Below, piece after piece: positions 19,261 through 62,451 of a DNA stretch of 64,000 nt (positions are counted from its first letter, which is position 1; each line of letters starts with the position of its first letter). Below the pieces are notes generated by a model. The model did no database searches. It saw nothing but the letters and a program-made list of their open reading frames with translations, and was not told the origin of the DNA. Position numbers and translations under genes: made by a program. Where the stretch lies: positions 3,557,969-3,621,968 of the forward strand of contig NZ_CP079194.1 in the NCBI RefSeq assembly GCF_019297855.1, written 5' to 3'. This DNA is from Gymnodinialimonas ceratoperidinii. GTDB taxonomy: Bacteria; Pseudomonadota; Alphaproteobacteria; Rhodobacterales; Rhodobacteraceae.

Positions 19261-19291
19261 AAAAAGACCCTCCGCTGTGGCGCGAAGGGTC
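19261..19291 (-). terminator. Intrinsic terminator after rplQ
   Basis: The minus strand gives GGACCCT / AGGGTC stems around a GC-rich inner pair, followed by TTTTTAG. It closes the rplO-rplQ transcription block. Confidence 0.85.
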
Positions 19292-19320
19292 CAATTCTTT
19301 GCCGAATTTTGAGGCAGGCC

Positions 19321-19737
19321 TTATTCGGCGTCTGCTTCGGCTTCGACGCGGGCACGGTCGGCGGCGCCTTTGGCGTTCACGTCGCGGTCCACGAATTCGA
19401 TGATCGCCATCGGCGCCATGTCACCAAAGCGGAAACCCGCTTTCATGATGCGTACGTAGCCACCCTGACGCTCGGCGTAACGGGGTCCGAGAACCTCGAA
19501 GAGCTTGGCGACGTCCTTGTCCTGCTTCAGCTGCGATGCGGCCTGACGGCGGGCGTGCAGATCGCCGCGCTTGGCGAGGGTCACCAGCTTCTCGATGATC
19601 GGGCGCAGTTCCTTGGCCTTGGGCAGGGTCGTCTTGATCTGCTCATGTTCGATGAGCGAGCCGCACATGTTCGAGAACATCGCTTTACGGTGTTCGTGGG
19701 TCCGGTTCAGGCGGCGGTATCCGCGGGCGTGACGCAT
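19321..19737 (-). CDS. rplQ: 50S ribosomal protein L17
   Basis: 138 residues, beginning [20 protein letters not shown], the conserved L17 N-terminus that lines the exit-tunnel side of the large subunit. The C-terminal tail after about residue 118 is Ala/Glu-rich. It follows rpoA as in the alpha operon, across 171 bases containing a stable hairpin. Confidence 0.97.
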
Positions 19738-19875
19738 GGTCTATCTCCAAAAATGTGCCCTCTACGGGCGTTTTTACTTTGTCTGGAACCCCGTGCGTGC
19801 GGGGCCCTCTCCTTGGGTCGAACCATGCGGATGCGTGGTGGGACCGTGTATTCCCCGGCTCTCCCGGGCATTGCT

Positions 19876-19901
19876 GCGGGCGAAGGTTGGCCCTCGCCCG
19901 C
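19876..19901 (-). promoter_or_regulatory. Hairpin between rpoA and rplQ
   Basis: An 8-bp stem GCGGGCGA / TCGCCCGC directly after the rpoA stop, without a T run. It may be a processing or attenuation signal inside the alpha operon. Confidence 0.5.
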
Positions 19902-19908
19902 AAATTCT

Positions 19909-20925
19909 TCAGAAGTTGTCTTCGTACTTCTTGGCCAGCTCTTCGATGTTGTCGGGCGGCCAGTCGACGATGTCCATGCCCAGGTGCAGGCCCATGCCCG
20001 ACAGCACTTCCTTGATCTCGTTCAAGGATTTGCGGCCGAAGTTCGGGGTGCGGAGCATCTCGGCTTCGGTCTTCTGGATCAGGTCGCCGATGTAGACGAT
20101 GTTGTCGTTCTTCAGGCAGTTGGCCGAACGCACCGACAGTTCCAGCTCGTCCACCTTCTTCAGCAGAAGCGGGTTGAACTCGAGGTCGTCCTCGTCGTCC
20201 TGGCGGGTCGCGCTCTCCGGCTCATCGAAGTTCACGAAGATCGACAGCTGGTCCTGGATGATCCGAGCGGCATAGGCCACGGCATCGTCAGGGCTCAGCG
20301 AGCCATCGGTTTCCAGCTTCAGGGTCAGCTTGTCGTAGTCCAGCACCTGGCCCTCACGGGTGGGCTGCACGTCGTAGGAGACCTTCTTGACCGGCGAGTA
20401 GATCGCGTCGATCGGCATCAGGCCGATGGGCGCATCCTCGGGGCGGTTCTTGTCGGCAGCGACATAGCCCTTGCCGGTGTTGACCGTCAGCTCGATGTAG
20501 AGGTCGGCACCGTCGTCGAGGTGGCAGATCACGTGGTCCTTGTTCAGAACCTCGATGCCCGCGCTCTCGGAGATGTCGCCAGCCGTCACGACCCGGGGGC
20601 CCTTGGCGGAGATGGAGACACGCTTGGGGCCTTCGGCATCCATGCGGATTGCCACGCCCTTGAGGTTCAGCACGATATCGGTCACGTCTTCACGGACGCC
20701 AGCCACGCTGGAGAACTCGTGCAGCACGCCATCGATCTGAACGCTGGTGATCGCCGCGCCTTGCAGCGAGGACATCAGGACACGCCGCAGCGCGTTGCCG
20801 AGCGTCAGGCCGAAGCCACGCTCCAGCGGCTCGGCAACCACGGTCGCCTTGCGCGCAGGATCATTGCCCGGCTGGACAACCAGCTGCGTGGGCTTGATCA
20901 GCTCTTGCCAATTTTTATGGATCAT
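19909..20925 (-). CDS. rpoA: RNA polymerase subunit alpha
   Basis: 338 residues starting [15 protein letters not shown]. The N-terminal assembly domain holds [16 protein letters not shown], the dimerisation helix. The C-terminal domain holds [19 protein letters not shown] and the helices that bind UP elements and activators. Length and layout are normal. Part of rpsM-rpsK-rpoA-rplQ. Confidence 0.98.
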
Positions 20926-21036
20926 ACGTCCCTCCATTCTTGTGTCGGGGGGATCCCGTCCCGGACACGCTCGAGGATCAAAATGACGTCACCCCACGCC
21001 ATCGAGGATGACGCGGGGGGAAGTAGAGAAATATGC

Positions 21037-21426
21037 TTAGACGCGGCGGCGCTTGGGCGGACGGCAGCCGTTGTGCGCCATCGGGGTCACGTCACGAATG
21101 GACGAGATCTGGAAACCCAGGGCAGCCAAGGCGCGCAGCGCGCTTTCACGGCCGGAACCGGGACCCTGCACTTCGACTTCCAGCGTGCGAACGCCGTGGT
21201 CCTGTGCTTTCTTGCCCGCGTCTTCTGCAGCCATCTGGGCAGCAAACGGCGTGGACTTGCGGGAGCCCTTGAAACCCATGGTGCCAGCGGACGACCATGC
21301 AATGGCGTTGCCCTGAACATCAGAGATAAGGATTTTGGTGTTGTTGAACGAAGAGTTCACGTGAGCAACGCCAGCGGCGATGTTCTTGGAGACCTTCTTC
21401 TTTGCGGGGCGACGATCGCGAGCCAT
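21037..21426 (-). CDS. rpsK: 30S ribosomal protein S11
   Basis: 129 residues with the conserved [12 protein letters not shown] start of the fold and the basic C-terminal tail [11 protein letters not shown] that contacts 16S rRNA in the platform. It lies 15 bases after rpsM and 111 bases before rpoA. Confidence 0.98.
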
Positions 21427-21441
21427 GCTATCAGCCCTCCC

Positions 21442-21810
21442 TTATTTCTTCTTGCCGGCAATGGCCTTTGCGGGGCCTTTGCGCGTGCGAGCGTTGGTGT
21501 GGGTGCGCTGACCGCGAACGGGCAGGTTGCGACGGTGGCGCAGGCCACGGTAGGAACCGAGGTCCATCAGACGCTTGATGTTCATCTGGGTCTCACGACG
21601 CAGGTCACCTTCGACGGCGTAGTTGGCGTCGATGTGCTCGCGGATGGCGAGAACTTCGGCGTCGGTCAGCTCGTTCACGCGACGCGTGGGGTCGATGCCG
21701 ACTGCTTCGCAGATCGCGGCAGCAGAGGTGTGGCCAATTCCGGTGACATAGGTCAGCGCGATCGGAACGCGCTTGGCGGTGGGGATGTTAACCCCGGCAA
21801 TACGTGCCAT
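21442..21810 (-). CDS. rpsM: 30S ribosomal protein S13
   Basis: 122 residues starting [15 protein letters not shown], which is preferred over an ATG nine bases upstream because it matches the family. The helix-two-turn-helix region and the lysine-rich C-terminus ([12 protein letters not shown]) that reaches the decoding region are present. No rpmJ is visible in the gap to adk. Confidence 0.98.
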
Positions 21811-21996
21811 GTGTGGCATATCCTTTTCGTTGCGAGCCCGTCATGCCAGGCCCTTTTTTCACAACGTAAGCCCGGGCTTTGTGCACCGGGCTTGCGAGGT
21901 AATATTTCGGGATCAAATGCGCATCTGATTCCCGTCAAGGTGCGGGATGTATGCCTCATTTGAGGAAAGGTCAATAGGCTGCGGGAACCCCGCGGC

Positions 21997-22638
21997 TCAG
22001 CTGTCCAGAACGTCCGCGATTCCCTTGGCGACGAAGTCGATCTCGCCCAGTCCGGGGACCCACCGCAGCTGCTCCTTGGCGTGGTAGTAGCCAAGCAGGG
22101 GCGAGGTCTTCTTGTAGTATTCCATCAGGCGGGTCTTGAGGCTTTCCTCGTTGTCATCCGCGCGACGCTTGAAGTCGGACGCGCCGCAGTTGGCGCACTT
22201 GCCGTCGGCCGGGATCGGCTTGGTCTGGTCGTTGTAGACCTCGCCGCATTCGCCGCAGGTCGAGCGCGCGGTGATGCGGCTGACCAGTTCTTCGTCGTTC
22301 ACCTCCATGGCGATCACGTGATCGAGCGTCTGGCCCACCTCTGCCAGGAGATCCGCCAGCGCATCTGCCTGTGCGAGGGTCCGGGGGAAGCCGTCGAAGA
22401 TGAAGCCGGTGCCGCCCGATTCCAGTTTCTCGCGGATCAGGCCGATGACGATCTCGTCGGTGACCAATTCGCCCTTGGCCATCACTTCCGCCACGCGGTT
22501 GCCCATTTCGGTGCCGCTGTCTTTTGCATCGCGCAGCATGTCTCCGGTGGAGAGCTGCACCATGCCACGTTCCTCCACGAGGATGCGAGCTTGGGTTCCC
22601 TTGCCCGCACCCGGCGGTCCTAGCAGAATAATGTTCAT
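21997..22638 (-). CDS. adk: Adenylate kinase
   Basis: A 213-residue nucleotide kinase balancing AMP, ADP and ATP. The P-loop is [11 protein letters not shown] at the N-terminus. The long LID domain carries a four-cysteine set (CGEC and CANC), indicating a zinc-binding lid as in many Gram-positive and some proteobacterial enzymes. The start overlaps the secY stop by four bases, so the two are coupled. Confidence 0.97.
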
Positions 22639-24002
22639 CGACGCGCTGGTCCTTTACGAGGTTTCTTCGCCCCACCCTTGCGACCCCGCAATTGGGATTT
22701 CTCCAGCAGGCCTTCATATTGGTGAGCCAGCAGATGAGACTGGATTTGCTGGACCGTGTCCATACCCACCGACACAATGATCAGGATCGAGGTACCGCCG
22801 AAGTAGGCGGTGATCGAAAGGTTGGTCCGCACCAATTCGGGCAACATGCACACAAGCGCAAGATAGCCGGCACCCAGAACGAGGATACGCTTCACCACGT
22901 ACTCGAGGTATTCCGCCGTCCGTGCGCCGGGGCGAATGCCCGGAATAAACCCGTTCTGGTTCTTCAGGTTGTCGGCCACGTCCTCGGTCTTGAAGGACAC
23001 GTTGAGGGTGTAGAAATACGTGAAGAAGACGATCATCGCGCCGAAGAACAGCAGGTAGAGCGGTTGGCCGGGACCGAAGTTCGCGAGGATCCAGCCGAGC
23101 ACCGGGCCGGTGCCTTCGGTACCGCCGAAAGTGGTCAGCGTGGTGGGCAACAGCAGCAGCGACGAGGCGAAGATCGCCGGGATCACGCCTGCCGGGTTCA
23201 CCTTGATCGGGAGGTGGCTGGAGCCGCCATCATAGACCTTCATCCCCACCTGGCGGCGCGGATACTGGATGTGGATCTTGCGCAGTGACCTCTCCATGAA
23301 CACCACGAAGATCAGTGTCGCGATCAGCATCGCGATCACCCCGATCGTCGTCGCCGCGGAGAGCGAGCTCCGCCCGGCTTCGAAGAACTGCGCCAAAGCG
23401 GCGGGGATCTCGGCCACGATGCCGACGAAAATGATGAGAGAGATACCGTTGCCGATGCCGCGGTTGGTGATCTGCTCACCCAACCACATCAGGAACATGG
23501 TGCCGCCGACCAGCGTGATCACGCAGCCTGCGCGGAAGAACCAGCCCGGATCCGTGGCGAGACCGCCGGATTCCATGCTGACCGCAAGGCCGTAGGCCTG
23601 TGCCGTGGCCAGGGCGACCGTACCGTAGCGGGTGTATTGGTTCAGCTTCTTGCGGCCCGCCTCGCCCTCTTTCTTCATCTGTTCCATCGCCGGCACCATG
23701 GCCGACATGAGCTGCACGATGATCGAGGCCGAGATGTAGGGCATGATGCCGAGCGCGAAGATACCCATCCGCGACAGCGCGCCGCCGGTGAACATGTTCA
23801 GAACGCCACCCAGACCGGCCGCAGCCGTATCGAAGAACGCGCGAAGCTGGACCGGGTCGATGCCCGGAACCGGGATGTAGGTGCCGATCCGGTAGATGAT
23901 CAGGAGACCCAGAGTGAACCAGATGCGCTGACGAAGTTCGGTCGCTTTACCGAACGCGCTCCAGCTCATGTTGGCGGCCATTTGCTCCGCTGCTGATGAC
24001 AT
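22635..24002 (-). CDS. secY: Protein translocase subunit SecY
   Basis: A 455-residue channel subunit of the Sec translocon with ten hydrophobic helices. Family landmarks are [22 protein letters not shown] at helix 1, the plug region, the [12 protein letters not shown] segment and the basic C-terminal tail. The start used is the first ATG; an in-frame ATG at 23981 after GGAG is an alternative. It follows rplO across 137 bases with an 18-bp hairpin. Confidence 0.97.
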
Positions 24003-24085
24003 GCTGTTCCACCCAATATACGCAAAGCCGCCGGAACCCGATGAAGGGCCCGAGCGGCGCGAGAAAAACCTTCAGAGAAGATGTA

Positions 24086-24103
24086 GGCGGAGAGCTCTCC
24101 GCC
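24086..24103. promoter_or_regulatory. 18-bp perfect palindrome between rplO and secY
   Basis: GGCGGAGAGCTCTCCGCC is fully symmetric. The minus strand continues for about 15 bases before a TTTTT run, so it is not a classical terminator. It may attenuate secY or mark an RNA cleavage site. Confidence 0.45.
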
Positions 24104-24139
24104 CACAACCGTTACGCGGGCCAAAAGACCCGTGATGGG

Positions 24140-24613
24140 TTACTCGGCCGCAGCGGGCGCGGCGACGTTGAGCGCGCCACCGGCGGCTGCAACGGCATCG
24201 ATCGCTGCCTTGGAAGCACCCGTGACGGTGATGTTCAGCTTGCCGGACACGTCGCCCTTGGCAAGGATGCGAACGCCATCGAGCTTGCGGCGGACCAGAC
24301 CGGAAGCAACCAGTGCGTCCTCGGTGATGTCCGCTTTGCCGTCGAGCTTGCCCGCGTCGATGAACTTCTGGATCAGGCCCAGGTTGACGACGGCGTACTT
24401 CTTGCGGTTCGGCTTGCTGAAGCCGCGCTTGGGAAGACGCTGGTAGAGCGGCATCTGGCCACCCTCGTAGGCGTTGATCGCCACACCGGAACGGGATTTC
24501 TGACCCTTGATACCGCGGCCACCCATCTTACCGGTGCCGGAACCGGGACCACGACCGACGCGCTTGCGCTTCTTCGTGGCACCTTCGTTATCACTGAGTT
24601 CATGAAGTTTCAT
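24140..24613 (-). CDS. rplO: 50S ribosomal protein L15
   Basis: 157 residues starting [20 protein letters not shown], with the glycine-rich basic extension [13 protein letters not shown] that threads into 23S rRNA. The binding site is GAGGAGAAG. In this genome it appears to lead a new transcription block, because a terminator and a foreign-looking gene separate it from rpmD. Confidence 0.98.
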
Positions 24614-24708
24614 GTCGCTTCTCCTCTGCCGGATGCGGCCCCCAGCGACGGGAGCGGCCGACCACGGCGTTTGCTAAAGATATGCAGCCCGGATCGGGCT
24701 ACCGGGGG

Positions 24709-24737
24709 CGTATAAGCGTGAGTCCCTGCGCGCGCAA
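24709..24737 (-). promoter_or_regulatory. Putative promoter for rplO-secY-adk-rpsM-rpsK-rpoA-rplQ
   Basis: The minus strand reads TTGCGC, 17 bases, TATACG, about 95 bases before the rplO start. Spacing and -10 match the other ribosomal promoters in this window. It is needed if the terminator after rpmD works. Confidence 0.6.
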
Positions 24738-24791: not shown

Positions 24792-25286
24792 TCAGCGGCG
24801 CGCGCTCATCCCGTGCTGCTGCGCCTGCTCGGCGGGGATGGCCCGTTCGCGCGGCGTGGCTGGCGCGAACCTTTCGGAAGCCTGCATCTCCGCGATGGTG
24901 TCGTAGGGGAGCCCGGCATGGGCCAGAGCCTCGGACTCGTCGGTGAAGGCATAAACCTCGATCCCCTCTGCCAATTCCGCAAGGGTCTCGTACATTCGGG
25001 CCAATCCGAAGATGACGTCATTGGGCGCGTAGATGACGGTATGGGTTTTGACCTGCACTCCCGGCGCCTGATTATTCACCTCGCGCAGCAAGGATTGCAT
25101 CAGGCGAAAGTTCACATCGAGATCATCGACCTCGGAAAGATCAACGAATTCAGCCCGACCCGGCACGTAATGCACGTCGTTACGATACGCATCGAATACC
25201 TCGAGGATTTGCTCGAAGGTGACAACGCCACTCCACTGGGCGAATAGGAAATTCCGCTCCAGGCAGGTTGAAAATTTAATGGGCAA
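24792..25286 (-). CDS. Unrecognised 164-residue protein inside the spc region
   Basis: It starts at TTG (MPIKFSTCLERNFLFAQW) with AGGGA eight bases upstream. Alternating hydrophobic strands and helices, the FVDLSEVDD strand-turn, and the overall size recall SpoIIAA/STAS-like proteins, but no motif settles it. The C-terminal 25 residues are polar and low-complexity. It lies between rpmD and rplO, after the rpmD terminator, with a 12-bp palindrome upstream. Not a ribosomal protein by composition: it is acidic. Confidence 0.7.
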   Translation of the reverse strand: MPIKFSTCLERNFLFAQWSGVVTFEQILEVFDAYRNDVHYVPGRAEFVDLSEVDDLDVNFRLMQSLLREVNNQAPGVQVKTHTVIYAPNDVIFGLARMYETLAELAEGIEVYAFTDESEALAHAGLPYDTIAEMQASERFAPATPRERAIPAEQAQQHGMSARR

Positions 25287-25350: not shown

Positions 25351-25378
25351 CAGGAGTCTGGGAATAGGCTTACTGAAT

Positions 25379-25408
25379 AAAAAAGACCCCGACCAAACGG
25401 CCGGAGTC
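25379..25408 (-). terminator. Intrinsic terminator after rpmD
   Basis: The minus-strand stem GACTCCGGCC / GGTCGGGGTC has ten pairs (two G-T) and a GTTT loop, then TTTTTT. It splits the classical spc operon. Confidence 0.9.
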
Positions 25409-25458
25409 TTTCGAGTATCTTAAATGTGACACCATTAGGTAGTGTCAGAGCAATGGCC

Positions 25459-25647
25459 TCAGCCGCGCTCTTCGATGATTTCCACCAGATGCGGGATCTT
25501 GTTGACCATGCCGCGGACCGAAGGCGTATCCTCCAGCTCACGGGTCTTGTGCATCTTGTTCAGGCCCAGGCCGATCAGCGTCTTGCGCTGAACTTCGGGG
25601 CGACGGATCGGCGAGCCGATCTGCTTTACGACAATCGTCTTAGCCAT
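25459..25647 (-). CDS. rpmD: 50S ribosomal protein L30
   Basis: 62 residues starting [20 protein letters not shown], the usual short L30 with [13 protein letters not shown]. It follows rpsE by three bases. Last ribosomal gene of the rpmC-rpmD block. Confidence 0.97.
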
Positions 25648-25650
25648 GGT

Positions 25651-26244
25651 TTAGGCCTCCTCGGAAACGGGCGCTTGCTCGCCGTCGATCTGCGGCGCGT
25701 CATCGCGCTTGGGCAGGATGTCGGCAACCTTCTTGCCACGACGCGACGCGACCTGGCGGGGGCTGGACTCGTTGCGCAGGCCGTCGAGCGTGGCACGGAT
25801 CATGTTGTAGGGGTTCTGCGAACCCGTGGACTTGGAAACCACGTCCTTGACGCCGAGCATCTCGAACACGGCACGCATCGGACCACCGGCGATGATGCCG
25901 GTACCTTCCGGAGCGGTGCGCATGGTCACCTTGCCTGCGCCGTGGTGGCCCAGAACGTCGTGGTGCAACGTGCGGCCCTCTTTCAGCGGCACACGGATGA
26001 GCTGACGCTTGGCCTGCTCGGTCGCCTTGCGGATCGCCTCGGGGACCTCTTTGGCCTTGCCCTTGCCGAAGCCGACACGGCCACGCTGGTCACCGACAAC
26101 CACGAGGGCTGCGAAACCGAAGCGCTTACCGCCCTTGACGGTCTTGGACACGCGGTTGATCGCGACCAGGCGGTCAGCGAATTCTGGTGTTTCTTCTTCG
26201 CGGTTGCGGCCTCGGCCACGCCCCCGGTTCTCACGTTCTGCCAT
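25651..26244 (-). CDS. rpsE: 30S ribosomal protein S5
   Basis: 197 residues. The N-terminal 25 residues are Arg/Glu-rich and extend the family core. Core motifs are [24 protein letters not shown] (here [20 protein letters not shown]) and the [13 protein letters not shown] helix. S5 influences decoding accuracy. Confidence 0.98.
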
Positions 26245-26365
26245 GTGGCAATTCCTTGTATTCGATGACGCTCAGCCGCGTCGGTTGTCTCGATCCTGGT
26301 GAGCCGGGCATCGCTGCCCTGCCCCCGGATCATCGAGGGCGCCCCATCGGAGCGCCCTTCAAGTC

Positions 26366-26725
26366 TTAGAACTTCAAGCCACCTTCACGCGCGGCGTCGG
26401 CCAAGGCCTTCACACGCCCGTGGAACAGGAAGCCGCCACGGTCGAAGTAGCATTCTTCGACGCCGGCCTTCTTCGCCCGCTCGGCAATCGCTTCGCCGAC
26501 CTTGGCCGAAGCCTCGACGTTGTTCTTGCCGACCACACCGAGCGACGGCTCGAGCGAGGAGGCCGAAGCCAGGGTCACGCCGTTGAGATCGTCGATCAGT
26601 TGGACAGAGATGTTCTTGTTCGAACGGTGAACCGACAGACGCGGACGTCCGTTGGCCATTTTCCGCATTTTGTTCCGGTTGCGCAGGCGGCGCTTCTGGA
26701 ACAGCTCTCGTTTGCTTAGTGCCAT
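26366..26725 (-). CDS. rplR: 50S ribosomal protein L18
   Basis: 119 residues binding 5S rRNA. It starts [20 protein letters not shown] and ends [20 protein letters not shown], both typical. A G/C hairpin (GGGCGC / GCGCCC, about 26333-26356) lies just downstream in the 121-base gap to rpsE. Confidence 0.97.
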
Positions 26726-26736
26726 TGTGCCAGCCC

Positions 26737-27270
26737 TTACTTCTTCTTGCCTTCCTTACGGAAGATATATTCGCCCTTGTAGCGAATGCCCTTGCCCTTA
26801 TAGGGCTCCGGCGCGCGCCATTCGCGAATGTTTGCTGCGACCTGACCAACAAGCTGCTGGTCGCTACCCTCGATCACGACTTCGGTGTTCTTGGGGCAGT
26901 TCACGGTGACGCCCTCCGGAACTTCGAAGTCGACGTCGTGGGAATAACCGAGCGACAGCTTCAGGGTGTTGCCCTGCATCTGCGCGCGATAACCCACACC
27001 CTGGATCTCAAGCTCTTTCTTGAAACCCTCGGTGACGCCGGTCACGAGATTCTGCACCATCGTGCGGGACATGCCCCACTGCTGACGGGCGCGCTTGGAC
27101 TTGCCACGCGGCTCGACAGAGATGGCGTTGTCCGCGACACTCAGCGAGACGTCGTCGGTTGCCTTGAAAGTGCGGGTCCCCTTGGGGCCCTTCACTTCGA
27201 TGGTCTGACCTGACACGGAAGCTTCGACGCCCCCGGGCAGCTCGACCGGTTTTTTACCAATACGAGACAT
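26737..27270 (-). CDS. rplF: 50S ribosomal protein L6
   Basis: 177 residues starting [19 protein letters not shown], with two similar alpha/beta halves and the conserved C-terminal [19 protein letters not shown]. It lies near the sarcin-ricin loop in the ribosome. Normal length. Confidence 0.98.
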
Positions 27271-27282
27271 TGCCAGATCTCC

Positions 27283-27675
27283 TTAGAAGATTGTGCAGAG
27301 TACTTCGCCGCCAACATTGTTGGAGCGAGCACTTGCATCGGACATGACGCCCTTGGACGTGGAAACGATCGACACACCCAGACCCTGACGGACCTGCGGG
27401 ATGTCGCCCACGCTCATGTAGACGCGACGGCCGGGTTTCGAGACGCGCTTGAGCTCACGAATAACCGGAGTACCTTCATAGTACTTCAGGCTGATTTCGA
27501 AGGCCGGGTGGCCATCTTTACCAGTCGTGGACTCGTAACCGCGGATGTAGCCTTCGTCCGCCAGCACATCCAGAACGCGAGCGCGCTGCTTGGAGGCCGG
27601 GGTTTCGACTGTGGACTTACCGCGCATCTGGGAGTTCCGGATGCGGGTCAGCATATCACCGAGAGGATCATTCAT
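27283..27675 (-). CDS. rpsH: 30S ribosomal protein S8
   Basis: 130 residues starting [20 protein letters not shown], with the RNA-binding C-terminal [20 protein letters not shown]. In Escherichia coli S8 represses the spc operon by binding its message near rplE; whether this holds here is not visible. Confidence 0.98.
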
Positions 27676-27689
27676 AATCTATCTCTCCC

Positions 27690-27995
27690 TTACCAGCTCG
27701 ACTTGACCATGCCGGGGATCTGACCATTGGAGGCCAGATCACGCAGCTTGATCCGCGACATTTTCAGCTTGCGGTAGTACGCCTTCGGACGACCGGTCAG
27801 GTGGCACCGGTTGTGAAGACGGGTGGGCGAGCTGTTGCGGGGCAGTTTCGCCAGCTTCAGGCGCGCCTTGAAGCGCTCTTCCATCGGCTTGGATTCATCG
27901 GTTGCGATCTCTTTCAGAGCGGCGCGCTTGTCGGCATATTTTGCCACAAGACGCTGACGCTTAAGTTCGCGCTGGACCATGGATACTTTTGCCAT
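27690..27995 (-). CDS. rpsN: 30S ribosomal protein S14
   Basis: 101 residues, the long C-minus form: the zinc-binding cysteine pairs are absent (only one Cys, in RCHLTGRP). The C-terminal [19 protein letters not shown] is conserved. Normal position between rplE and rpsH. Confidence 0.98.
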
Positions 27996-28013
27996 GTGTT
28001 CGTTCCTTTCGCG

Positions 28014-28574
28014 TCAGGCGTTGAAGGGCATGTTGAAGTGCTTCAGAAGCGACTTCGCCTCGGCGTCGGTATTCGCCGTCGTGACAATGATGATATCCAT
28101 GCCCCAGGCAACGTCGACTTTGTCGAAGTTGATCTCGGGGAATACGATATGCTCTTTCAAGCCCATGGCGAAGTTGCCACGACCATCGAAGGACGGCTTC
28201 ACACCACGGAAGTCCCGGATACGGGGCATGGCGATGGTCGTCAGACGGTCGAGGAAGTCGTACATGCGGTCGCCGCGAAGGGTCACCTTGGCACCCACGG
28301 GATGTTCTTCCCGCAGACGGAAGCCAGCGATGGACTTCTTTGCCTTGGTCACGACGGCGTGCTGACCTGCGATGGCCGTCAGGTCTTCCTGAGCGGATTT
28401 CGCTTTCTTGGTGTCACGCACGGACTCGGCACCGGACCCGATGTTGAGAACGATCTTCTCAAGACGCGGGATTTCCATGTCGTTCTTGTAGCCGAACTCT
28501 TCCTTCAGGGCCGCCTTGATCTCGTCGGCGAACTTGACCTTCAGGCGCGGGGTATAGTTTGCGGTATCCAACAT
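28014..28574 (-). CDS. rplE: 50S ribosomal protein L5
   Basis: 186 residues contacting 5S rRNA and P-site tRNA. The core [18 protein letters not shown] and the C-terminal [20 protein letters not shown] are typical. The start overlaps the rplX stop by one base. Confidence 0.98.
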
Positions 28575-28879
28575 CAGATCACGTCCCCCGTGGTCTTGGC
28601 GACGCGCACCTTCTTGCCGTCTTCGATCTTGAAGCCGACGCGGGTGGGTTTGCCGTTTGCATCGAGAAGAGCAAGGTTGCTCAGCTGGATCGGCATCGCT
28701 TGCGGGACGCGACCACCCTGGCTGGACTGGCTCTGCTTGGTGTGGCGGATGGCGATGTTCACGCCTTCCACGATGGCTTTGCCGGCAGACGGGTTGACGG
28801 AGGTGATTTCACCCTCTTTGCCCTTGTCCTTGCCGGCCAGCACGACGACCTTGTCGCCCTTTTTCAACTTGGCAGCCAT
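28574..28879 (-). CDS. rplX: 50S ribosomal protein L24
   Basis: 101 residues from [20 protein letters not shown], an SH3-like KOW domain; the ORF is open seven codons further up but those residues overlap rplN and are not family-like. An early-assembly protein of the large subunit. Confidence 0.97.
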
Positions 28880-28880
28880 C

Positions 28881-29249
28881 TTACAGCACCTCCGGCGCAA
28901 GCGAGATGATTTTCATGAAGTTTTTGGCGCGCAGCTCGCGAACAACCGGCCCGAAGATACGGGTGCCCATGGGCTCGTTGTTGTTGTTGAGGATCACGGC
29001 GGCGTTGCGGTCGAAGCGGATGGCGGTGCCATCTTCACGACGAACTTCTTTGGCGGTGCGAACGACGACGGCCTTGCGGACATCACCTTTCTTAACACGA
29101 CCGCGCGGGATGGCTTCCTTCACCGAGACGACAATGACGTCGCCGACGGAGGCGTATTTACGCTTGGAACCACCCAGAACCTTGATGCACTGAACACGGC
29201 GAGCGCCGCTGTTGTCAGCAACATCCAGATTGGTCTGCATCTGGATCAT
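28881..29249 (-). CDS. rplN: 50S ribosomal protein L14
   Basis: 122 residues starting [20 protein letters not shown]. The conserved [15 protein letters not shown] strand and the C-terminal [12 protein letters not shown] are present. Normal length. Confidence 0.98.
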
Positions 29250-29327
29250 TTGGTTTCTCCCGACGTCCCGGACCGGCTGAGTTGCACGTTGGCCCGGGGG
29301 TTTCGATTAGTTTGAGAAGCGACGGCC

Positions 29328-29558
29328 TTAACCGACAATCACTTCCCAGCGTTTGGATTTGGAAACCGGGGCGCACTCCTGAATGCGGACCTGGTCGCCG
29401 GTCTTGAAGGTGTTTTCAGGATCGTGAGCCCGGTACTTCTTGGACTTACGGATCGTCTTCTGCATGACCGGGTGCTTGAAGCGGCGCTCCACGGATACGG
29501 TCACGGTCTGCTCGTTGGCGTCGCTGGTCACGGTGCCGGTCAGGATGCGTTTGGGCAT
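29328..29558 (-). CDS. rpsQ: 30S ribosomal protein S17
   Basis: 76 residues starting [19 protein letters not shown], an OB-fold primary 16S rRNA binder. [20 protein letters not shown] is conserved. It is separated from rplN by 78 bases. Confidence 0.98.
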
Positions 29559-29561
29559 AAA

Positions 29562-29768
29562 TCAGGCCTCCGCTGCGGCAGCGGCCGCTTTTTCGTTCAG
29601 GATGGTCTTGACCCGTGCGGCGTCACGGCGAACCTGACGCATACGGGCGGTGTTTTCGATCTGGCCAGTGGCCTGCTGGAAGCGCAGGTTGAACGCTTCC
29701 TTCTTCAGAGACGTCAGCTCATCACGAAGCTGATCCGGCGTCTTGTCACGCAGTTCTTGGGCGCTCAT
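29562..29768 (-). CDS. rpmC: 50S ribosomal protein L29
   Basis: 68 residues started at [20 protein letters not shown], two codons inside the longest frame, to match the family. It is a two-helix protein at the exit tunnel with a short Ala tail. It leads its block, since rplP is about 2.8 kb away across a seam of other genes. Confidence 0.95.
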
Positions 29769-29858
29769 GCGCATATCCTTTCAACATCATCAGTCGGCCC
29801 CTTGCAGTTCAGTCGCAGGGTCACCGTGATTCTGATGGAGTTCGGTGAATGAATGCGC

Positions 29859-29887
29859 CGTATAGGAGGGTTCTCGCGTTATGGCAA
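29859..29887 (-). promoter_or_regulatory. Putative promoter for the rpmC-rpmD block
   Basis: The minus strand reads TTGCCA, 17 bases, TATACG, about 90 bases before rpmC. It has the same -10 and spacing as the str, S10 and rplO promoters. Confidence 0.7.
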
Positions 29888-30008: not shown

Positions 30009-30629
30009 TCATTCCCAGCGGTAATTGAAGCTCACGCTCACCCGGTCGTCCTCGTCCATGTTCATCGGCACCTCGTGACGCAGCCATGATTCCCACAGCA
30101 GAACGTCTCCCGTCTCGGGCTTGGGATAAACGAAGCCCCGCAGCTCTTCCCGCGCGTCCTTGCGGCGTGCGGGGGCGGCCATCATCATCGCGTGGCGCGG
30201 GTCCTCGAACTTGATCGAGGCGGCACCGGGCGGGATCTGCACGTAGGTCGTACCGGAGACCACCGAATGGGGGTGGATGTGGCCCGAGTGGGTGCCGCCC
30301 TCGGGCAGGATGTTGATCCAGATGTCCTCCAGCACCAGCCTGCGGCCCTCCAGATCGAAGGCGGCGTCTTCCGCGAAGGCGGCGACATGGGCGTCGAGCG
30401 CCTCCACCAGTTGCGCGAAGACCGGGAAGCGCCAGGGCAAGTCGCTGAGCGAGGCATAGGAGGTGTAGCCGGGAAAGCCGTTCTCCTCGCACCAGTCATG
30501 GCCCGCGTCGTCGTCTTCGGCGACCGAAAAGCAGCTCGCCGACAGCTCGTCGATGTCGACGGCGGGGCCAAGCTCCGAGAGCTTGGCGTGGTAGAGGCGG
30601 GTCACGAAGAGCGATTTTATCTGGGCCAT
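30009..30629 (-). CDS. 2OG-Fe(II) oxygenase-like protein (TIGR02466 type)
   Basis: A 206-residue cupin-like protein. HSGHIHPHSVVSGTTYVQ and a distal LRHEVPMN give a His-x-His...His set suited to an Fe(II) site, and the GTHSGHIHPHS context fits the uncharacterised TIGR02466 family. It lies between rpmC and rplP, antisense to none of them, on the same strand as the ribosomal genes. Some 2OG oxygenases hydroxylate ribosomal proteins (YcfD acts on L16), which makes the position next to the L16 block notable, but the substrate is unknown. Confidence 0.75.
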   Translation of the reverse strand: MAQIKSLFVTRLYHAKLSELGPAVDIDELSASCFSVAEDDDAGHDWCEENGFPGYTSYASLSDLPWRFPVFAQLVEALDAHVAAFAEDAAFDLEGRRLVLEDIWINILPEGGTHSGHIHPHSVVSGTTYVQIPPGAASIKFEDPRHAMMMAAPARRKDAREELRGFVYPKPETGDVLLWESWLRHEVPMNMDEDDRVSVSFNYRWE

Positions 30630-30726
30630 GGCGTCTTGTAGGATGCGACCCCGCCCGCCGCAACGTTTTGGAAACTTCTTGCCTCTATGAAGGGGAGAGC
30701 TAACCTAGCAATTCGAGGCGGCCAGA

Positions 30727-31692: not shown

Positions 31693-31742
31693 ATCACCCC
31701 TCGCCGCCAAGTGACGCCGGGAGGCAGATCCAGCCTCACAAC

Positions 31743-32375: not shown

Positions 32376-32494
32376 CAGCGTCTCCGGGAAGTGGTGTCAG
32401 GAAATCAACCGCCCCGGCCGCGTTCCGTTCCCTCGCGCCGCCACGCGCAACGACGCGCCAGCCCGTTCGGTGCCTCTTCTTCCGCGCGCCAAAC

Positions 32495-32521
32495 GAAAAA
32501 AGGCGGAGCCGCAGCCCCGCC
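32495..32521 (-). terminator. Intrinsic terminator after rplP
   Basis: The minus-strand stem GGCGGGGC / GCTCCGCC (eight pairs, one G-T) has a TGCG loop and is followed by TTTTTT. It ends the rplB-rplP block. Confidence 0.9.
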
Positions 32522-32554
32522 TTCTCTCAATCTCTGTCCACTCGGAAGCGGCGA

Positions 32555-32968: not shown

Positions 32969-32981
32969 TTGTCAGACCCTC

Positions 32982-34380: not shown

Positions 34381-34383
34381 ATC

Positions 34384-37646: not shown

Positions 37647-37647
37647 C

Positions 37648-38484: not shown

Positions 38485-38499
38485 GGTCAGTAGCCCTCC

Positions 38500-48616: not shown

Positions 48617-48697
48617 GAAACGCCCCTAACCTCCCGTTAAGGCGGAAGTTAGGCGAATTGGCCCGAGGGGGGAATCCCCCTTGGCCGGAGGTCGTTT

Positions 48698-49051: not shown

Positions 49052-49117
49052 CAGGACAACTCGCTGGCAGGGGAACATTACCGGAACCTTAGCAAAGGCC
49101 GGGCCTGAAACCACACG

Positions 49118-49149
49118 AAAAAACGCCCCGCTGTTTCCAACGGGGCGTT
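49118..49149 (-). terminator. Intrinsic terminator after rpoC
   Basis: The minus-strand stem AACGCCCCG / CGGGGCGTT is followed by TTTT. It ends the rplJ-rplL-rpoB-rpoC message. Confidence 0.9.
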
Positions 49150-49174
49150 TACAATCTCTTGAAGCGACGCGGCC

Positions 49175-57624: not shown

Positions 57625-57760
57625 GTTCGATCGCACCTTTCGTTTCTCGCGCCTCCCTCATGCCGTCGGGGCCCGGCTGAGGGTAGCAAGAAATAAGACA
57701 TGACGGATCAATCTGTCTGCCGTCCCACCGGCAAAGCCCGATCCCTTGTCACCGTCTTGG

Positions 57761-59089: not shown

Positions 59090-59884
59090 CTATTTGGCGA
59101 GATCTTCCAGCGTTGCCATCAGGCCCTCGGTCTCTCCTGTCTGGAGGTACATTTGTGCGCCGAGGATCAATTGCAACTCCTTCGCCAGCAACGCCATGCG
59201 CCGATGCGCGTTTTCGATGTGCTGCGCTTCCGCCTCGGTCGAGGTCTTCTCGGCCTGTGTCAGGATGCTGCGGATCTCGGCCAGGGTCTTTTCGTTCTCG
59301 ATCTCGCCGCGCTTCAGCCGCGCCTTCAGGTAGCCCAGTCCCTCCAGCGCGACACTGCGCGCCTCATCGCGGACCGAGGTGTTCTCCTCGGGGTCGGCGA
59401 TCGCGTCGAGCACCCGGTTCAGCGCCACCTGCAGGCGCCCGCGCAGGGAGCTGTCGGGGTCGGCCCCCGCGCCCATCAGCGCCGTGGCCCGCGCCGCGGC
59501 AGGCAGGTTCTGCCCCGCTGCCACCCGCGCCGTCGCGCGCCGCGTGGCCACGAAACTCGCCACGATCTGGCGCGAGGCCGCGATGGCCACCGGACTGCGC
59601 AACAGGGTGGCCGCCATCACGACACCATGTTCGGTGAAGGCCTTCGGTGGCCGCCGCCGGCCACCATGGCCGCTTGCGATCACATTTTGTGATTTCAAGT
59701 CGGCAAACTCCTCGCGGGTCAGCTCGAAGGCGAAGTCATCGCCGAATTTCTCCGCATTGCGCTTCACCGCCTGATTCAGGGCCGCGGTCTTCACGCCGAA
59801 TTGCGCGGCCACGTCGTGATCCAGCAGGCAGGGCACGCCGCGCAGCTCGATGATCTGTGGCGCGGGTTCGTCTGTGTCAGCCAT
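59090..59884 (-). CDS. ORF6N domain-containing DNA-binding protein
   Basis: A 264-residue protein. Residues about 10-95 match ORF6N: IIELRGVPCLLDHDVAAQFG, LNQAVKRN and the phage-antirepressor ending RRRPPKAFTEHGVVMAATLL. The rest is helical with charged coiled-coil stretches. ORF6N/KilA-N domains are typical of phage regulators. It has an AGAGGGG binding site. It interrupts rplK-rplA-rplJ-rplL; no other phage gene is nearby. Confidence 0.85.
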   Translation of the reverse strand: MADTDEPAPQIIELRGVPCLLDHDVAAQFGVKTAALNQAVKRNAEKFGDDFAFELTREEFADLKSQNVIASGHGGRRRPPKAFTEHGVVMAATLLRSPVAIAASRQIVASFVATRRATARVAAGQNLPAAARATALMGAGADPDSSLRGRLQVALNRVLDAIADPEENTSVRDEARSVALEGLGYLKARLKRGEIENEKTLAEIRSILTQAEKTSTEAEAQHIENAHRRMALLAKELQLILGAQMYLQTGETEGLMATLEDLAK

Positions 59885-59949
59885 GGGCAGCCCCTCTTGC
59901 AGTCACGGAGTGTGACCTCAAATGGGCAGGCTGCCCCGCCCGATTGCAA

Positions 59950-59979
59950 CAAAAAAGGCGCCCGCGAAGGGGCGCCTTT
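59950..59979 (-). terminator. Intrinsic terminator after rplA
   Basis: The minus-strand stem GGCGCCC / GGGCGCC is followed by TTTTTT. It ends rplK-rplA before the ORF6N gene. Confidence 0.9.
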
Positions 59980-60705: not shown

Positions 60706-60710
60706 GGTTG

Positions 60711-61163
60711 TTACCCCTTCACCTCGATGCCCATCGACTTGGCCGAGCCAAGGACGATTTTCATTGCTGCCTCGACGTCGTTCGCGCTGAGGTCGACCAT
60801 CTTCGCTTCTGCAATCTCGCGCAGCTGCTTGGATGTGATCGTTGCCACCGTCTCACGACCGGGCGTCTCTGCACCACGGGGACGGTTACGCTTGCCGACG
60901 GGCTTAAGGCCGGCGGCTTTCTTCAGGTAGTAAGACGCAGGCGGCGTCTTGATGTCCATCGTGAAGGACTTGTCCTGGTAGTACTGGATGACGGTCGGGC
61001 ACGGTGCACCCTGCTCCATCTCCTGCGTCTTGGCGTTGAACGCCTTGCAGAATTCCATGATGTTGATGCCGCGCTGACCCAGCGCAGGGCCCACGGGGGG
61101 GCTTGGGTTGGCTTGACCTGCAGGGATCTGCAGTTTCATCGAGCCGACGAGTTTCTTGGCCAT
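60711..61163 (-). CDS. rplK: 50S ribosomal protein L11
   Basis: 150 residues starting [20 protein letters not shown], with the Pro-rich [20 protein letters not shown]-terminal domain and the rRNA-binding C-terminal domain. It is the thiostrepton-site protein and needed for stringent response. The binding site is AAAGGAGAGG. Confidence 0.98.
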
Positions 61164-61475
61164 GAGGCCTCTCCTTTATACCAACAGCCCCTCATCGCGT
61201 TTCGGGGCCTTTGTGGCTGCGGTCTGGTCCGACGATCGCGATCGCCTCGCCTCCCACAGTTTTCAGGGACGAACGCAGGGCGCCCATCCATGGAAGCCCG
61301 CCTCCTAAGCCGGAATCGCGGTCATGGCAAATGGAAAATGGCTCGCAAGCGCGTGTCGCGGGCCCCTGCCGTATTCCGGCTGGCCGCGGGGCGGGCGGCG
61401 TGCGCCCTGACAGCGTCCCCAACGCAAAAGGCCGCCCCCTTCGGAGCGGCCCTGCAACCTCGGCGCGATTTGCGC
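61164..61475. other. 312-base gap between nusG and rplK
   Basis: It holds the nusG terminator, then about 240 bases that should contain the rplK promoter and leader. I see TTGCCA-N17-TAGGAG as the best promoter guess, which is weak, and a small CCCC / GGGG hairpin 35 bases before rplK. An open minus-strand frame of 76 codons has no protein-like character. Confidence 0.4.
61424..61452 (-). terminator. Intrinsic terminator after nusG
   Basis: The minus-strand stem GGCCGC / GCGGCC is followed by TTTTGCG. It separates secE-nusG from rplK. Confidence 0.8.
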
Positions 61476-62009
61476 TTACATCTGTTTGGAAACCTGCGTG
61501 TATTCCAGCTCCACCGGCGTCGCGCGGCCGAAGATCGAGACCGTCACCTTCAGGCGCTGGTTCTCTTCGTCGACCTCTTCGACCATGCCGTCGAAATCCT
61601 CGAACGGGCCATCGTTGACCTTGACCTTCTCGCCGACCTCAAAGGTGATCGTCGAGCGTGGGCTGGCTTCGCCCTCTTCCACGCGGTTGAGGATCGCGTT
61701 CACTTCCTCGTCGCGCATCGGCATGGGGCGGCCTTGCGGGCCGAGGAAGCCGGTGACCCGCTGGATCGACGAGATCACGTGGTAGCCCACGTCTGTCATC
61801 TCCATGCGGACCAGCACGTAGCCGGGCATAAAGCGGCGCGGTACGGTGACCTTCTTGCCGCGGCGGACCTCGATCACGTCTTCTTCCGGGACCAGCACTT
61901 CTTCGATCACGTCCTCGAGGCCCTTTTCGGCCACGGCGGTCCTGATCTGCTCTGCGATGCGTTTTTCAAAGTTCGACAGAACCGAGACCGAATACCAGCG
62001 CTTCGCCAT
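61476..62009 (-). CDS. nusG: Transcription termination/antitermination protein NusG
   Basis: 177 residues: N-terminal NGN domain ([30 protein letters not shown]) and C-terminal KOW domain ([20 protein letters not shown]). It links polymerase to Rho or to S10 on the leading ribosome. The gap to secE is 193 bases. Confidence 0.98.
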
Positions 62010-62202
62010 GAATGCGTTTCCGTTTATTAGCGGGCCCTCAGCGGGGCCGGGTGTTGCAACGAGACCAGAATCGGCCCTCTCCCCATTACCACATCCCAGC
62101 GGTGCGCGCTGTCAGATGCTTCAGGTTTGGGGGATGGTGGCGGAGTACAAGCCAAGTCAGGGGAAATCAAGCCCCCTCGACGTCGGCACCCGGTGCGAGA
62201 GA

Positions 62203-62394
62203 TCAGCCGAAAGAGGTGAGGATCAGCTCAAGCGCATTGCGGATCAGCCAATCAACGCCGAAAAAGAAGATCGCGGCCAGAACAGCCATCACGAAGACCA
62301 TGGCCGTCGTGACCAGCACTTCGCGGCGGGTCGGCCAGACAACCTTCGCCACTTCAGAGCGGGTTTGCTGCAAAAACTGGAACGGATTTGTCAT
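62203..62394 (-). CDS. secE: Preprotein translocase subunit SecE
   Basis: 63 residues from MTNPFQFLQQTRSEVAKVVW, the short single-helix form with the conserved EVAKVVWPTRREV amphipathic helix and one membrane span. The frame is open 19 codons upstream across the promoter, which rules that start out. Confidence 0.96.
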   Translation of the reverse strand: MTNPFQFLQQTRSEVAKVVWPTRREVLVTTAMVFVMAVLAAIFFFGVDWLIRNALELILTSFG

Positions 62395-62422
62395 GGGTCG
62401 GTCACTTCCTTCGATCACAGCG

Positions 62423-62451
62423 CATATACGCATGAGGGCGCGCGCATGCAA
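62423..62451 (-). promoter_or_regulatory. Putative promoter of secE-nusG
   Basis: The minus strand reads TTGCAT, 17 bases, TATATG, about 28 bases before secE. It covers an ATG at 62446 on the other strand, which argues for the GTG at 62467 as start of the divergent gene. Confidence 0.7.

What the first reader, a model, noticed from the sequence alone, without database searches (positions are those of the whole stretch)
19261..62451. Ribosomal/RNA polymerase supercluster is broken into separately transcribed blocks by non-ribosomal genes
Directly visible: gene order is canonical, but non-ribosomal genes sit at six seams (rplA/rplJ, rpoC/rpsL, tuf/rpsJ, rplW/rplB, rplP/rpmC, rpmD/rplO). Terminators are seen after rplA, rpoC, tuf, rplW, rplP, rpmD and rplQ, and promoters with the same spacing lead several blocks. 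The seam genes lean to envelope and lipid functions (OmpA-domain protein, muramidase, fatty-acid hydroxylase, acyltransferase, glycosyltransferases). Inference: insertions were tolerated only at block boundaries, or the boundaries were rebuilt after insertion. Either way, growth-rate control would be exerted at many promoters.
Basis: partly seen in the sequence, partly recalled or inferred. Interest (0 to 1): 0.7.

Follow-up and report, generated by a model that had tools for sequence, protein, structure and literature searches.

The report
Ribosomal superoperon split into portable modules
In this family of bacteria the normally unbroken block of ribosome genes has come apart at a few fixed points, where the next piece starts with its own RNA control element and often its own promoter, and other genes slip in, or pieces move away, at those points.

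Summary
The seams are real. All 39 cluster genes carry the expected domains. U-tailed hairpins follow rplA, rpoC, tuf, rplW, rplP, rpmD and rplQ; promoter-like sites precede rpsL, rpsJ, rplB, rpmC, rplO.

In 117 family loci, 22 within-block junctions between rpsJ and rplQ are closed in 1964 of 1964 assessable cases. Seams are open or inverted: rpoC/rpsL 29/30, tuf/rpsJ 31/76, rplW/rplB 75/104, rplP/rpmC 92/104, rpmD/rplO 46/65. Ten outgroup alphaproteobacteria are closed at the last three. Most seam-gene families (175 of 232) are single ORFs.

Overlooked: blocks start with covarying leader RNAs. The rplB one is Rfam's L2-Alphaproteobacteria leader; for those before rpmC, rplO, rpsJ and rpsL I found no Rfam match and no paper in the listings seen. 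Models of the first three hit 100, 107 and 75 of 120 family genomes; in 115 class draws they hit two, both of this family. The rpmC and rplO leaders also sit in closed seams (10/12, 17/19), where promoters and terminators are sparser: leaders probably came first, promoter, terminator and insert later. Ligands, transcripts and growth-rate control are untested.

The parts
62203..62451 (-). secE, first gene of the cluster
   Evidence: Pfam SecE
59944..59979 (-). terminator-like hairpin after rplA
59090..59884 (-). seam rplA/rplJ: ORF6N-domain protein
   Evidence: Pfam; no homolog found in the other loci held (few cover this seam)
57655..57744 (-). Rhodo-rpoB RNA (Rfam RF03074) between rplL and rpoB
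   Evidence: 53.8 bits against a gathering score of 33.6
49111..49150 (-). terminator-like hairpin after rpoC
46028..49114 (-). seam rpoC/rpsL: glyoxalase-fold protein 48698-49114, Rhamno_transf 47711-48616, EamA 46848-47867, Rhamno_transf 46028-46855
   Evidence: Pfam; EamA and Rhamno_transf are long-term residents of this seam
45987..46014 (-). promoter-like site of the str block, TTGACA-17-TATAC
   Evidence: 11/11
45826..45937 (-). rpsL leader: two covarying hairpin regions, the second U-tailed (attenuator-like)
   Evidence: alignment A7, 21 pairs, 14 with double changes
41360..41392 (-). terminator-like hairpin after tuf
38972..41136 (-). seam tuf/rpsJ: fatty-acid-hydroxylase-domain protein 40117-41136, Acyl_transf_3 protein 38972-40120
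   Evidence: Pfam
38941..38968 (-). promoter-like site of the rpsJ block, TTGCTC-17-TATAC
   Evidence: 9/11
38818..38885 (-). rpsJ leader RNA, model R3
36733..38811 (-). block rpsJ-rplC-rplD-rplW
   Evidence: Pfam
36648..36691 (-). terminator-like hairpin after rplW
35402..36400 (+). seam rplW/rplB: OmpA-domain protein, opposite strand
   Evidence: Pfam; homolog at this seam only in G009 among the loci held
35393..35420 (-). promoter-like site of the rplB block, TTGACC-17-TAACA (weak)
   Evidence: 8/11
35345..35378 (-). sequence-conserved U-tailed hairpin in the rplB leader region (candidate attenuator)
35229..35300 (-). L2-Alphaproteobacteria leader (Rfam RF03142)
   Evidence: 59 bits against 37.8; family 98/120 (77 over the cut-off), class draw 2/115
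32555..35226 (-). block rplB-rpsS-rplV-rpsC-rplP
   Evidence: Pfam
32489..32524 (-). terminator-like hairpin after rplP
30009..32375 (-). seam rplP/rpmC: DUF998 protein 31743-32375; 2OG-Fe(II) oxygenase TIGR02466 30009-30629
   Evidence: oxygenase resident in most family loci
29860..29887 (-). promoter-like site of the rpmC block, TTGCCA-17-TATAC
   Evidence: 11/11
29770..29841 (-). rpmC leader RNA, model R1
25459..29774 (-). block rpmC-rpsQ-rplN-rplX-rplE-rpsN-rpsH-rplF-rplR-rpsE-rpmD
   Evidence: Pfam
25372..25411 (-). terminator-like hairpin after rpmD
24792..25286 (-). seam rpmD/rplO: 164-aa protein, no Pfam or NCBIfam family above cut-off
   Evidence: homologs at the same seam in congeners
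24710..24737 (-). promoter-like site of the rplO block, TTGCGC-17-TATAC
   Evidence: 9/11
24611..24671 (-). rplO leader RNA, model R2
19321..24613 (-). block rplO-secY-adk and rpsM-rpsK-rpoA-rplQ (adk/rpsM is a minor seam in relatives, 6/41)
   Evidence: Pfam
19255..19292 (-). terminator-like hairpin after rplQ

Best explanation
[quoted passage not shown] rpmD], [rplO secY adk, then rpsM ... rplQ]. Each module starts with a structured leader RNA that most likely binds a ribosomal protein of that module and represses its translation or continuation (ligand inferred). Leaders probably arose first, inside a contiguous transcript. With control local to each module, the DNA just upstream of a leader became neutral ground: promoters upstream of the leader and terminators after the preceding block appeared there, genes inserted in either orientation, and blocks moved away with their leader. 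Shown: positions, conservation, covariation, order of features, distribution. Inferred: protein binding, repression, transcript ends, causal order.
For: Closed within-block junctions 1964 of 1964 against open seams. Leaders with covariation scores above all 500 shuffles and above slid controls; models hit 100, 107 and 75 of 120 family genomes and 2 of 115 class draws each, the two being of the same family. Leader R1 in 10 of 12 and R2 in 17 of 19 closed seams (with gaps); of these, 4 and 3 were not among the sequences that built the models. Promoters open versus closed: rpsJ 29/31 vs 0/41, rpmC 79/90 vs 6/12, rplO 40/44 vs 3/19, rplB 33/74 vs 3/29; control genes rplN 0/100, rpsE 0/89, rplP 0/115, secY 2/56, rpsH 5/96. 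Terminators open versus closed: tuf 20/20 vs 3/34, rplW 38/41 vs 6/14, rplP 40/43 vs 4/7, rpmD 24/25 vs 4/13; controls rplR 4/55, rpsQ 0/55, rpsG 1/40. Opposite-strand ORFs, by simple calls, in 36/74 rplW/rplB and 67/90 rplP/rpmC loci, so a single sense transcript through such a seam would run antisense to them. Displaced blocks keep their leader: G133 247 kb, G067 204 kb, G056 2.55 Mb along the contig, G103 57 kb, G021 137 kb.
Against: No RNA data. No ligand shown; a covariance-model comparison with E. coli rRNA found no convincing mimicry. R3 is found in only 75 of 120 genomes. Promoter consensus at rplB is weak (33/74). One within-block junction, rplO/secY, also shows hairpins above shuffles (15/55 vs 4/55). 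Outgroups, which lack the leaders, have a promoter-like site before rpsM in 8 of 9 and occasional wide junctions of their own (rpsG/fusA 638 bp, rplO/secY 304 bp, G032 rplR/rpsE 399 bp). Sequences that built the models match them by construction, and each tested structure came from the aligned sequences themselves. G081, the most basal family tip, lacks the leaders and is closed, but it and G105 are long branches and loss is possible. The closed rpmC set is small (12) and loci are not independent; closed gaps are short, which lowers terminator and promoter detection. Nested closed states could be re-closures that lost promoter and terminator rather than ancestral ones.
Confidence: 0.7

Rival explanations
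1. Boundaries were made by insertion: genes inserted at random, cells survived only where the insert brought or recruited a promoter and terminator, and leaders evolved afterwards on the new 5' ends.
For: Promoters and terminators are concentrated in open seams.
Against: Leaders sit in most closed seams (10/12 and 17/19). Inserts differ from locus to locus while leaders are shared across the family. Flanking hairpins of one open rplW/rplB seam are no more alike than those of different loci (mean longest shared string 6.10 vs 5.99, n 68). Random insertion should also have hit junctions such as rplR/rpsE, rpsQ/rplN or rplO/secY, 0/91, 0/102, 0/58.
Confidence: 0.18
2. Ordinary drift of gene order: seams are simply the widest intergenic gaps, so inserts land there without any regulatory cause.
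For: Closed seams are 114-271 bp (medians), wider than most junctions.
Against: Comparable gaps stay closed: rplR/rpsE 120 bp 0/91, rplO/secY 109 bp 0/58, rpsK/rpoA 100 bp 0/35, rpoA/rplQ 136 bp 0/35, rplL/rpoB 231 bp 1/18 open. In nine outgroups the three inner seams are 2-93 bp, in the tenth -4 to 6 bp.
Confidence: 0.06
3. The conserved elements are not protein-binding leaders but RNase or small-molecule control elements or transcript-stabilising 5' hairpins; modularity is then due to promoters alone.
For: No ligand is shown; the rplB and rpsL elements carry U-tailed hairpins.
Against: Each lies directly upstream of one ribosomal gene; the rplB one is already filed as an L2 leader candidate, though with rating '?' (PMC7247131 passages).
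Confidence: 0.2

Closest known systems
[quoted passage not shown] abstract, outline and found passages read)
   Same: Few genes are inserted between units first; full separation follows; insertions at rpoBC/str and str/S10.
   Different: That paper treats operon-operon junctions; 'promoter', 'terminator' and 'Alphaproteobacteria' do not occur in its main text. Here three seams lie inside S10 and spc, while the classical S10/spc border rpsQ/rplN (recalled) is never open (0/102), and seams carry leaders.
L2-Alphaproteobacteria ribosomal leader, RF03142 (PMC7247131 Table 1, passages read)
   Same: The window has a full-length hit directly upstream of rplB.
   Different: In my draws it is confined to this one family (98/120, 77 of them over the cut-off, vs 2/115). 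In 72 of 74 open loci a U-tailed hairpin lies 60-260 nt upstream of rplB (shuffled 32 of 74); in the window it lies outside the Rfam match.
Ribosomal-protein leaders of other bacteria (for example S10, S8, S7, L10 leaders; recalled)
   Same: Structured RNA upstream of a ribosomal gene, lineage-limited.
   Different: The rpmC, rplO, rpsJ and rpsL elements of the window match no Rfam 15 family even at E up to 5; ligands unknown.
Rhodo-rpoB RNA, RF03074
   Same: Present upstream of rpoB in the window.
   Different: Its junction, rplL/rpoB, is not a frequent insertion seam (1/18).

Membership tests
Ribosomal-protein leader RNA (autogenous cis-regulator) | lies in the 5' region directly upstream of a ribosomal gene | tested here: met
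   R1 before rpmC, R2 before rplO, R3 before rpsJ, A7 element before rpsL
Ribosomal-protein leader RNA (autogenous cis-regulator) | conserved secondary structure with compensatory changes | tested here: met
   pairs with changes on both sides: 8 of 12; 5 of 9; 9 of 12; 14 of 21; covariation score reached by 0 of 500 shuffles in each, but the count of such pairs was reached by 45 of 500 and 15 of 500
Ribosomal-protein leader RNA (autogenous cis-regulator) | mimics the protein's rRNA site | tested here: inconclusive
   best scores on the E. coli rRNA operon 5.5, 7.0 and 8.2 bits, E 1.9, 0.62 and 0.19; no 16S found in the window's assembly
Ribosomal-protein leader RNA (autogenous cis-regulator) | is bound by a protein encoded in the unit and represses it | not testable with these tools
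   needs binding and reporter assays
L2-Alphaproteobacteria leader RF03142 | score above the gathering cut-off, full length, upstream of rplB | tested here: met
   59 bits vs 37.8, positions 1-66 of 66
Brandis-type operon-cluster disconnection | insertion of a few genes, then separation | tested here: inconclusive
   both open seams and displaced blocks exist at the same seams; their order in time was not dated event by event
Brandis-type operon-cluster disconnection | breaks at classical operon borders | tested here: not met
   rpsQ/rplN 0/102; three seams lie inside S10 and spc (borders recalled), though rpoC/rpsL and tuf/rpsJ are classical borders
Separate transcription units at the seams | terminator before and promoter after the seam | tested here: met
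   sequence signals, frequent in open seams and sparser in closed ones; real transcript ends not tested

The most novel reading that the evidence does not exclude
Lineage-specific leader RNAs made a near-universal superoperon divisible: after this family evolved leaders inside S10 and spc, the borders of ribosomal transcription units were redrawn around the leaders, and only then did insertion and dispersal become harmless. Four of these leaders (rpmC, rplO, rpsJ, rpsL) and the U-tailed hairpin before the L2 leader are undescribed regulators.
Probability: 0.45. Interest if true: 0.75.

Novelty: new variant of a known kind. Interest (0 to 1): 0.6.

Why it matters
Why ribosomal gene order is so stable is an old question. 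Here is a family in which the order is loosened at a few fixed points, each marked by a leader RNA, with closed and open versions side by side in close relatives. That gives a natural experiment for whether local feedback control, rather than co-transcription, is what allows a superoperon to be split. It also adds four candidate ribosomal leader RNAs with strong covariation for binding tests.

Tried and rejected
Generic promoter/terminator scan: counts do not exceed shuffles, so no evidence by itself. Duplication of one hairpin on both sides of an insert: not supported. rRNA mimicry by covariance model: nothing convincing; a partial R2 hit lies in 23S with 6.3 bits. Functional lean of seam genes to envelope: no recurring family outside the window; of 109 representatives scanned (of 124 drawn from tuf/rpsJ, rplW/rplB and rpmD/rplO) 85 Pfam families were hit, only 3 by two proteins, and I saw 25 of the 85; lipid A acyltransferase, fatty-acid desaturase and acyltransferase are among them, so a mild lean is not excluded. 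Oxygenase as a gene tied to rplP or rpmC transcripts: not supported, since it lies in either orientation (63 and 27 of 90). Literature: the listings of searches and the 12 shown of 937 and of 23 named no paper on these seams in Rhodobacterales or on the rpmC, rplO, rpsJ, rpsL leaders; led to PMC7247131. The library holds open-licence papers only, so this is weak evidence of novelty.

Rows dropped before counts: L006 (identical to a stretch of G003; one search finds no other pair with the same start of rplB) from the locus tallies; G032 (cluster on the other strand) from the outgroup rows, added; G032, G034 and G056 and loci with under five of the twelve proteins from the tree; four fusA/tuf values of -2100 (fusA query matching tuf at contig starts) read as artefacts. 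A junction is assessable only if both genes lie in the stretch held, so blocks displaced beyond it are not in the 1964. One search counts of one or two open tips within blocks are a strand artefact; one search is the corrected table. Terminator counts use up to 55 randomly chosen loci per gene. Open means a gap of 300 bp or more, a threshold of my choice.
Full report
Observation. The cluster runs on the minus strand from secE (62451) to rplQ (19321). I scanned its 39 genes with Pfam and all matched as expected. The seam genes are: ORF6N protein at rplA/rplJ; glyoxalase-fold protein, two Rhamno_transf proteins and an EamA transporter at rpoC/rpsL; fatty-acid-hydroxylase-domain and Acyl_transf_3 proteins at tuf/rpsJ; an OmpA-domain protein on the opposite strand at rplW/rplB; DUF998 and a 2OG-Fe(II) oxygenase at rplP/rpmC; a 164-aa protein without a family at rpmD/rplO. 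No muramidase domain was found among them.

Gene order in relatives. I fetched the cluster from 47 unnamed relatives (12 of the genus, 25 of the family, 10 of the class) and 80 named rplB loci. One of the named records, identical to genome G003 of the window's genus, is titled 'Rhodobacterales bacterium HKCCE4037'. Gaps between neighbouring genes were measured from tblastn positions. In 117 family loci (38 unnamed including the window, 79 named), the 22 within-block junctions between rpsJ and rplQ are closed in every assessable case, 1964 of 1964 (sum; adk/rpsM counted as a seam). Open or inverted: rpoC/rpsL 29 of 30, tuf/rpsJ 31 of 76, rplW/rplB 75 of 104, rplP/rpmC 92 of 104, rpmD/rplO 46 of 65, adk/rpsM 6 of 41, rplA/rplJ 3 of 14, nusG/rplK 3 of 6; rare others are rpoB/rpoC 2 of 28 and rplL/rpoB 1 of 18. 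The rplA/rplJ and nusG/rplK openings are all in the window's genus. In ten outgroup alphaproteobacteria rplW/rplB (2-31 bp), rplP/rpmC (-4 to 48) and rpmD/rplO (-1 to 93) are closed; rpoC/rpsL is 300 bp or more in 3 of 5 rows, so that border is older. Outgroups have wide junctions elsewhere: adk/rpsM in 3 of 9, and single cases at rplA/rplJ, rplL/rpoB, rpsG/fusA, rplO/secY and rplR/rpsE. Spacer length alone does not explain the family pattern: rplR/rpsE (median 120 bp), rplO/secY (109), rpsK/rpoA (100) and rpoA/rplQ (136) are never open.

Breaks. Where the cluster is physically split in the stretches held, the split falls at a seam, apart from an unresolved case upstream of rpoB in G080. Positions of leaders and rplB in whole genomes show displaced blocks: in G133 the rpmC and rplO leaders lie about 247 kb from rplB; in G067 the rplB-rplP cassette lies 204 kb from the other leaders, on the other strand; in G056 the rplO leader is 2.55 Mb from the rpmC leader along the contig (1.6 Mb the other way if it is circular); in G103 57 kb and inverted; in G021 the rpsJ leader is 137 kb from rplB. 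I read these cases off the tables by eye and did not count all genomes; many other separations are across contigs and may be assembly gaps.

Turnover of seam genes. Simple ORF calls (120 aa or more) gave 485 seam ORFs in 232 families, 175 of them single. At rplW/rplB 70 of 82 families occur in one locus; at tuf/rpsJ 27 of 30. Two seams have residents: the 2OG-Fe(II) oxygenase (rplP/rpmC, largest family, 78 of 84 loci with ORFs) and, at rpoC/rpsL, two families in 22 and 19 of 26 loci, which the homology search identifies as EamA and Rhamno_transf. Opposite-strand ORFs occur in 36 of 74 rplW/rplB and 67 of 90 rplP/rpmC loci. On a FastTree of 12 ribosomal proteins (121 tips) the open/closed state needs 11, 14, 9 and 11 changes at tuf/rpsJ, rplW/rplB, rplP/rpmC and rpmD/rplO; the tree is built from the same cluster's proteins.

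Leader RNAs. Rfam finds the L2-Alphaproteobacteria leader before rplB and Rhodo-rpoB before rpoB. Upstream alignments showed further conserved elements. Alignment and folding give: rpmC leader, 58 sequences, 12 pairs, 8 with changes on both sides, 98.7% of cells paired against 38-59% when slid; rplO leader, 51 sequences, 9 pairs, 5 with double changes, 97.8% against 28-55%; rpsJ leader, 48 sequences, 12 pairs, 9 with double changes, 92.1% against 33-54%; rpsL leader, 34 sequences including one outgroup, 21 pairs, 14 with double changes, 94.1% against 29-47%. No shuffle of 500 reached the observed covariation score in any, though the number of pairs with double changes was reached by 45 (rplO) and 15 (rpsJ) of 500. 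The structures were derived from these same alignments. A permissive Rfam scan lists nothing at these four places.

Distribution. Models R1 (rpmC), R2 (rplO), R3 (rpsJ) hit 100, 107 and 75 of 120 family genomes; in 115 class draws each hits only G000 and G152, both of the window's family. Twenty of the 120 family genomes lent a sequence to R1, and named loci may overlap with others. RF03142 behaves the same: 98 of 120 (77 over its cut-off) and 2 of 115, none in 14 control genomes. Nearly always there is one match per genome. These searches use stricter filters that can lose weak matches. G081, sister to the rest of the sampled family on the pruned tree, and long-branched G105 lack R1, R2 and RF03142 and are closed at the three inner seams.

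Order of events. R1 is in 10 of 12 closed rplP/rpmC seams and R2 in 17 of 19 closed rpmD/rplO seams, missing only in G081 and G105 (gaps); 6 and 14 of these hits were model members, 4 and 3 were not. Promoter-like sites (TTGMCA, 16-18, TATAM, at least 9 of 11) are common in open and sparser in closed seams: rpsJ 29/31 and 0/41, rpmC 79/90 and 6/12, rplO 40/44 and 3/19, rplB 33/74 and 3/29; rpsL 16/17 open. Controls: rplN 0/100, rpsE 0/89, rplP 0/115, secY 2/56, rpsH 5/96; rpsM, at the minor seam, 11/39, and 8/9 in outgroups. Terminators: tuf 20/20 and 3/34, rplW 38/41 and 6/14, rplP 40/43 and 4/7, rpmD 24/25 and 4/13, rpoC 15/17 open, rplA 3/3 open; shuffles gave 4 to 7 of 18 to 55 for rpoC, tuf, rplW, rplP and rpmD; controls rplR 4/55, rpsQ 0/55, rpsG 1/40, but rplO 15/55 against 4/55 shuffled. 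The consensus was chosen after seeing alignments, and short closed gaps reduce detection; both weaken but do not remove the contrast. The reading is: leader first, then promoter, terminator and insert. Re-closure after loss is not excluded, since closed tips are nested among open ones.

rplB leader. In 72 of 74 open loci a U-tailed hairpin lies 60-260 nt upstream of rplB, against 32 of 74 in shuffles; a promoter-like site of at least 9 of 11 is there in 41 of 74 against 4.7 in shuffles, while 8 of 11 is little evidence (70 against 31). Where a site of 8 or more and a hairpin were both found, the site was upstream of the hairpin in 64 of 68. In closed seams the hairpin is in 14 of 25. The sequence core (CCGGATTCGTCCGG-like) occurs 44 times in the 2.75 Mb locus set, in 44 loci, every time within 250 nt of rplB, never on the other strand and not in outgroups. 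In the window the one seam gene is on the plus strand, so the minus-strand hairpin belongs to the rplB transcript if the weak promoter is right. It may be an attenuator working with the L2 leader (inference).

Comparison with the known. Brandis 2021 (PMC8046335; abstract, outline and passages) found in Gammaproteobacteria and Bacilli that genes are first inserted between operons and separation follows. The present case looks alike, but three of its borders are new ones inside S10 and spc, and the old S10/spc border (rpsQ/rplN, recalled) is never open. The paper on 20 ribosomal leaders (PMC7247131; passages only) lists the L2 leader candidate for Alphaproteobacteria with rating '?'; 'rpmC', 'rplO' and 'rpsJ' do not occur in its main text.

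Limits. Computation only. No transcript, binding or growth data. Family genomes in the whole-genome searches were drawn one per genus, and the str and rpoBC parts were covered in fewer loci (n = 5 to 44).

Noticed in passing
window 17707-19039 (-): A luxI-like autoinducer synthase and a luxR-like autoinducer-binding protein lie directly downstream of the rplQ terminator.
   Followed up: no
window 30009-30629 (-): The 2OG-Fe(II) oxygenase of family TIGR02466 is a near-permanent resident of the rplP/rpmC seam across the family, in either orientation; two solved structures (3bvc, 2rg4) are named uncharacterized. A role on the ribosome is possible but unsupported.
   Followed up: partly
window 35345-35378 (-): Sequence-conserved U-tailed hairpin in front of the L2 leader, seen only upstream of rplB in the locus set.
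   Followed up: yes
window 45826-45937 (-): The rpsL leader carries a second, U-tailed hairpin that looks like an attenuator; a related element was aligned from one outgroup genome, G033.
   Followed up: partly
window 21778-21898 (-): A sub-threshold match to the alpha-operon ribosome binding site RNA (RF00140, 22.4 bits against 38, E 0.39) sits just upstream of rpsM, where that element is expected.
   Followed up: no
window 58936-59100 (-): Region before rplJ resembles an L10 leader by eye (recalled motif), but Rfam lists no hit there even permissively.
   Followed up: no
G000, whole assembly: No 16S rRNA match was found in the window's single-contig assembly; perhaps masked or a limit of the search, which also missed it in 5 of 14 control genomes.
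   Followed up: no
window 59090-59884 (-): The ORF6N-domain (phage antirepressor-type, recalled) gene between rplA and rplJ has no homolog in the other loci held, few of which cover this seam: possibly a recent arrival.
   Followed up: partly
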